The notes under the pieces were generated by a model. That model was given only the letters and a program-made list of their open reading frames with translations. It searched no databases and was not told the origin of the DNA. Shown here one piece after another: positions 28,505 through 30,820 of a stretch of 34,869 nucleotides of DNA. The position numbers and the translations under genes are program-made. Source of the stretch: Akkermansia muciniphila (lineage in GTDB: Bacteria; Verrucomicrobiota; Verrucomicrobiia; Verrucomicrobiales; Akkermansiaceae); assembly GCA_945862285.1 (NCBI GenBank), contig CAMAYN010000016.1, forward strand, positions 1 to 34,869, given 5' to 3'. Position 1 is the first letter of the stretch. Every line of letters begins with the position of its first letter.

Positions 28505-28550
28505 AAAAACAAGCCAACAATAGAGAAAATATCACCAAAAGCAACAAAAA

Positions 28551-28802
28551 AATTCCCCATAACAGGATAAAAACATCCTCTTACAATTTAGCAATATCCC
28601 TGCACATTGCAGCAATTCACTCTTAAGCAAGAGTAATACCCTATTAAAGTAACATAACGTCCTTGTATATATAAGCAACGTATCTTTAGACAAAAACATC
28701 GTCCTTTTCCATGAATGCAATGCGTTCTTACAATAAATTATCATCCTTTTAGAAAAAAATAACATCCCCTAACAAGAAAACAATGTGTTCTTCCACTCAA
28801 AC
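28551..28802. repeat. Degenerate AT-rich 21-bp tandem repeat, 12 units
   Basis: Units at 28551 + 21n: aattccccataacaggataaa / aacatcctcttacaatttagc / aatatccctgcacattgcagc / ... / atcatccttttagaaaaaaat / aacatcccctaacaagaaaac / aatgtgttcttccactcaaac; no indels. Confidence 0.85.
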
Positions 28803-29373
28803 AACGAGCAATGCACCAATTCTACCCAAGCCGAATGAGGCGACACCAAAAATCGAATGGCGAAACAACATCCACAAAAATCCCCCCAGCACCATTTTTC
28901 CCTTTCCATCCAGGCCACTTCCCGCTACGAACTGTTCAAAACGACACCCACACATGCGCTACATGGCCTCACCACTGCAAAGCCTCCTCACCACCTACCG
29001 CAAAGCCTCCCTAGGGCACATCAAGCGCCAATATGTAAGCATCGCAAAAGACAGCGAAATCATGAACGATCCCAAGTATTCTCTAGAGTTAATCCTCAGC
29101 GTCATCACCGTAAGGCAAGAAACCAACAAAATCGTGGCAAGTTTACCAGCAATGAATATCTAAAATCATGAGCGACAACGTAATCCGAAAAATTCGCCAT
29201 GACACGACTGGGTTGCAAATTCGTGAGTGCTATCAATGAAACAAAGCCAAACAATCATGAAACGAACGACTCTCTTTCGCAGTCTGACGTCCCCAATTTT
29301 TCTTTCTGATGACTGAGTATCTTCACCCCATTTACCTCGTATTGTGCATTACGCAAAATTCCGGCTTGCAATC

Positions 29374-29389
29374 GGTATCATCTGATACC
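29374..29389. promoter_or_regulatory. Palindromic candidate operator GGTATCA-TC-TGATACC upstream of the TAC operon
   Basis: Perfect 7-bp inverted arms with 2-bp spacer, about 35 bp upstream of the first ORF of the operon. Confidence 0.6.
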
Positions 29390-29423
29390 AAATTGACCTC
29401 GTCGCTATGAAAAACACACACCC

Positions 29424-29828
29424 ATGCACCGCAGACCATCCCACAAGGAGCTTAGCAAGAAGCTGGATCAGGCGAAAGAAGCTCTGACGGCAGGTCGCGT
29501 CCTGATTGCTAACGAACAGAAGCATTTTCAGCCTGACATGCAGGAATGCCGCAGCGCGACAAGCAAAGCACACTTCCACCGAATCTTGGAGTTCTTGGAA
29601 GAAATTGCGGCAGATGGAGGTGCCGATTGTTACGTTGGCCGCTATCCCCCCTACAAGTGTTATGAAAAGAACTTTGAAAACGATGAACTCTACGCCTTTT
29701 CCTGGCAGAGCCCACGCATGAAAAAGCGGATGTATCTCAAATTTGGCATACGAACTACAAAAGCAGAAGAACCTTGGTATATTTACCTCAATTGTCATGA
29801 AGACCAACCCGAAAAGAAAAATCGCTAG
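29424..29828 (+). CDS. Putative type II toxin (MqsR/HigB-like)
   Basis: 134 aa; C-terminal KKRMYLKFGIRTTKAEEPWYIYLNCHED resembles the terminal beta strands of RelE-fold toxins; overlaps an MqsA-like antitoxin gene. Confidence 0.6.
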   Translation: MHRRPSHKELSKKLDQAKEALTAGRVLIANEQKHFQPDMQECRSATSKAHFHRILEFLEEIAADGGADCYVGRYPPYKCYEKNFENDELYAFSWQSPRMKKRMYLKFGIRTTKAEEPWYIYLNCHEDQPEKKNR

Positions 29829-30390
29829 GTGGCAGCCACCAGGCGAATGCCTTGCCTGCGGCAGTGAGTCCGGCTTGTTGCGTCACCGTATCAGCTCGGA
29901 CAAAGTGGTGCATGGCGAGACATTTCACGTATCGCACCACGGCTACGAGTGCCGCGACTGCGGCTTCACCTTCCTCGGTCCTGAGGAAATGGATGAAGCC
30001 GTGCGCGCCGCCGTGGTAGCCTACCAGACCAAACACGATCTTTTGACCGCATTGGAATTGCGCGATCTGCGCAAAAAAATGAAATGGTCACAAACCGATC
30101 TAGCTCGCTACAGCGGTCTGGGCATCGCCACCATCAAGCGCCTAGAGCTCGGCTGCAACGTGCAAACCAAATCCAACAACGCCGCATTGGTGCAGTGCCT
30201 CAGTCAAGATCAGCCGATTGGTGAGACGCTGGAATGGGAAACGGCTTATCACAACGACATCCCTTCCATAGTAGATGCAGCCAAGCCTCCGTCTCTCATG
30301 TCGAATCTTAGTTGGATTTCGCTCCCGAAGATCATCTGTGCCGAACCCTCAGAAAACCGCTTCGAGGATTTGTTAGTTCCCGTTTACTAG
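29797..30390 (+). CDS. MqsA-like antitoxin: zinc finger + HTH, with C-terminal extension
   Basis: CLACGS...YECRDCGFTF paired Cys motifs; LRDLRKKMKWSQTDLARYSGLGIATIKRLELG HTH; about 50-residue tail SIVDAAKPPSLMSNLSWISLPKIICAEPSENRFEDLLVPVY; start at 29797. Confidence 0.85.
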   Translation: MKTNPKRKIARWQPPGECLACGSESGLLRHRISSDKVVHGETFHVSHHGYECRDCGFTFLGPEEMDEAVRAAVVAYQTKHDLLTALELRDLRKKMKWSQTDLARYSGLGIATIKRLELGCNVQTKSNNAALVQCLSQDQPIGETLEWETAYHNDIPSIVDAAKPPSLMSNLSWISLPKIICAEPSENRFEDLLVPVY

Positions 30391-30400
30391 AATCAAAATC

Positions 30401-30820
30401 ATGCTAAGCCAACTTCAATTGCACAAACAGGTGCTCTTACGTTTTGCCATCGAAGCCAAGACCCTGCCCAGCGAGGAGTTAGGCGACGAATACGACATGA
30501 AAACGCAAATCTCCGTTCCGGCATTCTCGGAAGCGGATCAAATGTGGGTCATCGGTCTGCGCATGGAATTTGGTCCTGACAAAGAGGCGACAAAGCCCAC
30601 GCCTTATCACGGTGAGTGCGAGATGCACGGGTACTTTTCGATCCACGAGAGTGTGCCCGAGGCGAAACGACAAGAGTTTTTGCAAATGAATGCAGGAGCC
30701 ATCCTTTACGGTATGATGCGTGAATGGGTCGCCCAATCCACTTCTCGCAGCCTTCACGGCATCCACTATCTACCCACCCTTGACGCCCGCTGTTTCATCC
30801 CAGTGAAGGTGATGTCGTGA
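30401..30820 (+). CDS. SecB-like chaperone (TAC-associated)
   Basis: 139 aa; LQLHKQVLLRFAIEAKTLP...QMWVIGLRMEFGP...GECEMHGYFSIHESVPEAKRQEFLQMNAGAILYGMMREWVAQSTSRSLHGIHYLPTLDARCF follows the SecB layout. Confidence 0.75.
   Translation: MLSQLQLHKQVLLRFAIEAKTLPSEELGDEYDMKTQISVPAFSEADQMWVIGLRMEFGPDKEATKPTPYHGECEMHGYFSIHESVPEAKRQEFLQMNAGAILYGMMREWVAQSTSRSLHGIHYLPTLDARCFIPVKVMS

What the first reader, a model, noticed from the sequence alone, without database searches (positions are those of the whole stretch)
29374..30820. Candidate toxin-antitoxin-chaperone (TAC) operon with a SecB-like chaperone
Seen: three tightly packed + strand ORFs (32-bp overlap between genes 1 and 2, 10-bp gap between 2 and 3). 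They encode a 134-aa small basic protein, a zinc-finger+HTH MqsA-like protein and a SecB-like protein. Known: TAC systems pair HigBA or MqsRA type TA modules with a dedicated SecB-like chaperone. Inference: this is a TAC module, and its toxin is divergent enough from MqsR/HigB that it may be an unrecognised toxin family.
Basis: partly seen in the sequence, partly recalled or inferred. Interest (0 to 1): 0.85.

Follow-up and report, generated by a model that had tools for sequence, protein, structure and literature searches.

The report
Chaperone-guarded toxin system with unclassified toxin
Three adjacent bacterial genes appear to form a self-poisoning switch (a toxin, its antidote and a helper protein that protects the antidote), probably used against viruses, and its toxin belongs to a family that no database we searched recognises.

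Summary
In detail: three same-strand genes, T 29424-29828 (134 aa), A 29797-30390 (197 aa), C 30401-30820 (139 aa), with a 32-bp overlap and a 10-bp gap. A is an MqsA-family antitoxin; C is a SecB-like chaperone, the only SecB-like gene found in this genome. T matches nothing in Pfam, NCBIfam, PADLOC or the PDB. It is no orphan: 19 further loci in the same order carry relatives, and all 20 have T-A-C on one strand. Y104-x-K106-F107 and H125 are invariant. A confident T model (pLDDT 90) matches no solved fold, but profiles link T to other TAC toxins whose model resembles BECR toxins, and more weakly to MqsR. Best reading: a TAC module with a new RelE/MqsR-like toxin family, probably phage defence, since relatives sit among defence genes. 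Unexpected: in some relatives the antitoxin end repeats the host tmRNA degradation tag, 10 of 10 residues in three genomes, with different codons; in 174 genomes the only coding genes ending in NELALAA were TAC antitoxins. The window antitoxin lacks this tail. Toxicity, RNase activity and defence are untested.

The parts
29424..29828 (+). T: candidate toxin, 134 aa, family without a Pfam/NCBIfam/PADLOC/PDB match; predicted helix1-strand-helix2-helix3-three long strands; invariant Y104-x-K106-F107 and H125, H34 nearly so
29797..30390 (+). A: MqsA-family antitoxin, 197 aa: four invariant Cys (CxxC...CxxC), HTH, then a C-terminal extension of about 65 aa (candidate chaperone-addiction region), ending LLVPVY
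   Evidence: TIGR03830 above its cut-off; family profile matches E. coli MqsA structure 3gn5 over residues 4-120; alignment
30401..30820 (+). C: SecB-like chaperone, 139 aa, the only SecB-like gene found in the genome
   Evidence: Pfam SecB E 3e-4, below cut-off; family profile vs PDB SecB 1fx3 E 3e-9; own-genome search

Best explanation
The three genes are a toxin-antitoxin-chaperone (TAC) module. T is probably a small ribonuclease of the RelE/MqsR (BECR) type that stops translation. A binds T through its zinc domain, represses the operon through its HTH, and has a C-terminal extension that cannot hold itself stable. C, a SecB-like chaperone dedicated to A, covers that extension. When C is drawn away, most likely by a newly made phage protein, A is degraded by a ClpP-type protease and T is freed to halt the infected cell. 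Shown here: gene order, family assignments of A and C, complete co-conservation, no other SecB-like gene found, defence-gene neighbourhoods of relatives, and tmRNA-type degradation tags on some related antitoxins. Inferred: that T is toxic, that it cleaves RNA, that A represses and neutralises, that C protects A, and what the trigger is.
For: 20 of 20 loci keep T-A-C; correlated divergence of the three proteins, r 0.56-0.74, 0 of 2000 permutations as high (shared ancestry not removed). A in TIGR03830 in 9 of 9 members scanned; C family matches SecB structures at 3e-9 and weakly (0.023) Rv1957, the M. tuberculosis TAC chaperone. No other SecB-like gene in the genome. T vs sister TAC toxins: hhalign P 0.0013, 0 of 300 column shuffles as high; the sister model matches TA toxin 7vd7 (Foldseek prob 0.98), with YoeB and HigB2 lower down. 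T vs MqsR: P 0.0035, 0 of 200 shuffles with 9 sequences. Neighbours of relatives: 196 PADLOC families hit in 60 neighbours vs 18 in 72 control genes. Known TAC behaviour: PMC5105189, PMC11618068, PMC8165232.
Against: Foldseek found no significant PDB or viral match for the T model (best E 0.5 and 0.05) although the model is confident. The MqsR signal weakened with 18 sequences (2 of 300 shuffles as high), and T shows none to Gp49/HigB TAC toxins. The window locus itself has no obvious defence neighbours. The window antitoxin lacks the tmRNA-like tail. No expression or activity data.
Confidence: 0.85

Rival explanations
1. The TAC module is real, but T is not a BECR ribonuclease: it has another fold and another target (for example a nucleotide- or RNA-modifying enzyme), as CmdT of CmdTAC turned out to be an mRNA ADP-ribosyltransferase.
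For: Confident model without a fold match; TAC toxins are known to vary (PMC11618068); an ART-like toxin with a SecB-like gene sits in the same order (L022; ART reading from recall).
Against: Profile links to BECR-like sister toxins and MqsR beat shuffles; the Y-x-K-F motif matches MqsR Y81-x-K83; order of helices and strands resembles that of MqsR (PMC2791442 and own knowledge).
Confidence: 0.3
2. T is not a toxin but an accessory or regulatory protein of a chaperone-antitoxin pair.
For: No toxicity data; two loci have broken frames in T (in-frame TGA in G502; short T in G684).
Against: First-gene position, size and charge of TAC toxins; T is present at every locus of this kind and co-varies with A. 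A broken toxin is also what TA systems often show.
Confidence: 0.07
3. C is an export SecB that happens to lie next to a TA pair.
For: It is a SecB homologue.
Against: SecB-like genes recur beside varied TA pairs across the order, and 20 of 20 T loci have one; most genomes sampled have no match to this chaperone family (21 of 243 have one), so it cannot be a general export factor there.
Confidence: 0.03

Closest known systems
MqsRA-type TAC (for example Vcho-TAC, PMC5105189)
   Same: MqsA-family antitoxin with a C-terminal extension, SecB-like chaperone, toxin gene first
   Different: T is not in the MqsR family (no Pfam match); no MqsR was found in 117 genomes of the phylum, though that search also failed in all control genomes
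HigBA-TAC of M. tuberculosis (Rv1955-Rv1957)
   Same: Three-gene architecture, SecB-like chaperone, ClpX-type degron at the antitoxin end (PMC8165232)
   Different: Antitoxin is MqsA type, toxin not HigB; sequences far apart
CmdTAC / PD-T4-9
   Same: T-A-C order, SecB-like CmdC (weak PADLOC hit), antitoxin ending in LAA as in several relatives
   Different: CmdT is an ADP-ribosyltransferase; CmdA is two helices plus an unstructured tail as described in PMC11618068, not MqsA-like
MqsR toxin (E. coli)
   Same: Order of secondary structure, Y-x-K motif around catalytic Tyr81, partner is MqsA
   Different: No significant sequence match; H125 where MqsR has K96; conserved H34; longer (134 vs 98 aa)

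Membership tests
TAC system | Type II TA pair and SecB-like chaperone in one operon-like array | tested here: met
   (the toxin role of T itself is inferred)
TAC system | Antitoxin with a C-terminal extension beyond its classical relatives | tested here: met
   197 aa vs about 131 in E. coli MqsA; profile match to MqsA ends at position 132 of 187
TAC system | Chaperone needed for antitoxin stability and toxin control | not testable with these tools
   needs expression experiments
TAC system | ClpX-type hydrophobic or LAA degron at the antitoxin end | tested here: inconclusive
   clear in several relatives (AA or ELALAA); the window ends VY
MqsA antitoxin family (TIGR03830) | Model score above the curated cut-off | tested here: met
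   66.2 vs 61.8 bits; Pfam MqsA_antitoxin 26.7 vs 30, below
SecB (PF02556) | Model score above the curated cut-off | tested here: not met
   21 vs 26 bits; the family profile matches SecB structures at 3e-9, so SecB-like rather than export SecB
MqsR toxin (PF15723) | Family model match | tested here: not met
BECR-fold (RelE/ParE/MqsR) toxins | Central antiparallel sheet with flanking helices, shown by structure comparison | tested here: inconclusive
   no direct Foldseek match; indirect profile links
CmdTAC | ADP-ribosyltransferase toxin | tested here: inconclusive
   no ART family matched T and no ART among the listed PDB fold matches; catalysis not tested

The most novel reading that the evidence does not exclude
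In this order of bacteria, TAC antitoxins of different toxin families have evolved C-termini that copy the host's own tmRNA (ssrA) tag in full, so that the antitoxin is always marked as a failed translation product and survives only while its SecB-like chaperone hides the tag; the toxin here is a new Tyr/His ribonuclease family restricted to such modules.
Probability: 0.4. Interest if true: 0.75.

Novelty: new variant of a known kind. Interest (0 to 1): 0.58.

Why it matters
It adds a toxin family to the TAC repertoire, outside current annotation, with named residues (Y104, H125) that make the mechanism directly testable. The tmRNA-tag tails in relatives suggest a simple answer to how some TAC antitoxins are made unstable: they carry the host's own degradation tag and depend on a chaperone to cover it.

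Tried and rejected
Searches of plasmids with six T-family proteins, phages and viral contigs found no T relatives. Alignment A4 could not be used on viral contigs. PDB sequence searches with T profiles gave only chance hits. Pfam hits of T members to FbpC-like_RD, Phage_TAC_3 and Mcm-like_N occur in one member each and were rejected. HigB/Gp49 kinship of T was tested and not supported. PF15723 (MqsR) in the phylum rang nowhere, including controls, so it is uninformative. No sigma-70 promoter-like site and no inverted repeat upstream of T.

Full report
Observation. The window is one contig (C16) of a 3.65-Mb genome.

Who they are. A scores above the NCBIfam cut-off for the MqsA family and its family profile matches the E. 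coli MqsA structure across zinc and HTH domains. It is about 65 aa longer than MqsA, at the place where TAC antitoxins carry a chaperone-addiction extension (PMC5105189). C alone falls below the Pfam SecB cut-off, but a profile of 20 relatives matches SecB crystal structures at 3e-9 and Rv1957 weakly. No second SecB-like gene was found in the genome (genome 92% complete). T has no family match.

Relatives. A scan of GTDB genomes gave L002 (58% in the best segment) and a genome search gave L003. Chaperone and toxin profiles then found more: 19 of 391 genomes of the order carry T, window included. With L002 there are 20 loci; in all of them T is followed by an MqsA-like gene and a SecB-like gene on the same strand. 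Only 1 of 11 genomes in the window's genus has it, so it is an accessory trait. No member was found outside the order in the phylum sample; other phyla were reached only through plasmid, phage and viral collections and one scan for close relatives. The organism is probably a member of Verrucomicrobiales near Akkermansia; this rests on the title of L002 and is inference.

What T might do. Alignment of 18 members leaves Y104, K106, F107 and H125 invariant. The model has pLDDT 89.8 and pTM 0.84, with helix, short strand, two main helices and three long strands. Foldseek found nothing significant. Other TACs of the same order carry a different small toxin (L018, L020, L023, L026; no Pfam match). 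Its model matches a Salmonella TA toxin (7vd7, prob 0.98, E 0.05), with YoeB and HigB2 lower in the list. T and this sister group align over 83 columns (P 0.0013; 0 of 300 shuffles as high). T and MqsR align with P 0.0035 (0 of 200 shuffles), but 2 of 300 with the larger T set; HigB/Gp49 gave no signal. In the MqsR comparison T Y104 falls on Tyr81, one of the two residues strictly needed for RNA cleavage (PMC9636575). I therefore favour a divergent BECR ribonuclease, at about 0.65, within the TAC reading.

Defence context. Neighbours within two genes of 18 family loci hit 196 PADLOC families at 1e-8, chiefly methyltransferases and UvrD-type helicases among those shown, against 18 families for genes at arbitrary places in genomes of the same order. 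PADLOC models of one kind overlap, so family counts exaggerate the ratio; for the most-hit model 6 of 60 neighbours match, against 2 of 72 controls. The window locus itself lies between a large dehydrogenase-like gene and metG (names from recall), without such neighbours. HigBAC and CmdTAC are known phage-defence systems triggered by phage structural proteins (PMC11980606, PMC11618068), which is the model for the mechanism proposed.

The tmRNA tag. ARAGORN gives host tags such as ANSNELALAA in G709 and ADSNELALAA in G181; the G724 tag, read from a partial tmRNA by pattern, is ADSNELALAA. The antitoxins end ANSNELALAA in G709, ADSNELALAA in G181 (an ART-like TAC) and ADSNELALAA in G724: ten of ten residues, following the host's own second residue. 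G479 and G481 antitoxins share the last eight with the G481 tag. Codons differ between antitoxin and tmRNA, so selection acted on the protein; it is not simply a recent copy of the tmRNA DNA. In 174 genomes the pattern for NELALAA plus stop occurs 85 times: 80 tmRNA genes, one tmRNA cut by a contig end, one match without a stop, and three TAC antitoxins. CmdA is reported to end in LAA like other TAC antitoxins (PMC11618068), and HigA1 in a ClpX degron (PMC8165232); I found no paper in the held library describing whole-tag copies, which is not proof that none exists. The window antitoxin ends LLVPVY although the host tag is ADSNEYAMAA, so this does not apply to it directly.

Verdict.

Noticed in passing
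L052, L022, L048, L040, L044 (antitoxin ends); L067, L068, L069, L061 (tmRNA): TAC antitoxins end in the host tmRNA tag, 10 of 10 residues in three genomes, with different codons; no other coding gene with NELALAA at its end in 174 genomes.
   Followed up: yes
L018, L020, L023, L026: A second small TAC toxin family without a Pfam match, with HTH antitoxin and SecB-like gene; its model resembles BECR toxins.
   Followed up: partly
L022:1468-2806 (- strand): ART-like toxin, small antitoxin ending ADSNELALAA and SecB-like gene: probably a CmdTAC relative (ART reading from recall; Pfam found nothing).
   Followed up: partly
L047:1474-1893 and L053:874-1905: Broken modules: in-frame TGA in T of G502; short T and split A in G684.
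   Followed up: no
L103, L104 (G425:C1): Two tmRNA genes in one genome, both scored as tmRNA by ARAGORN.
   Followed up: no
window 28505-29420: About 0.9 kb without a convincing gene, low G+C and strong skew, directly upstream of the operon.
   Followed up: no
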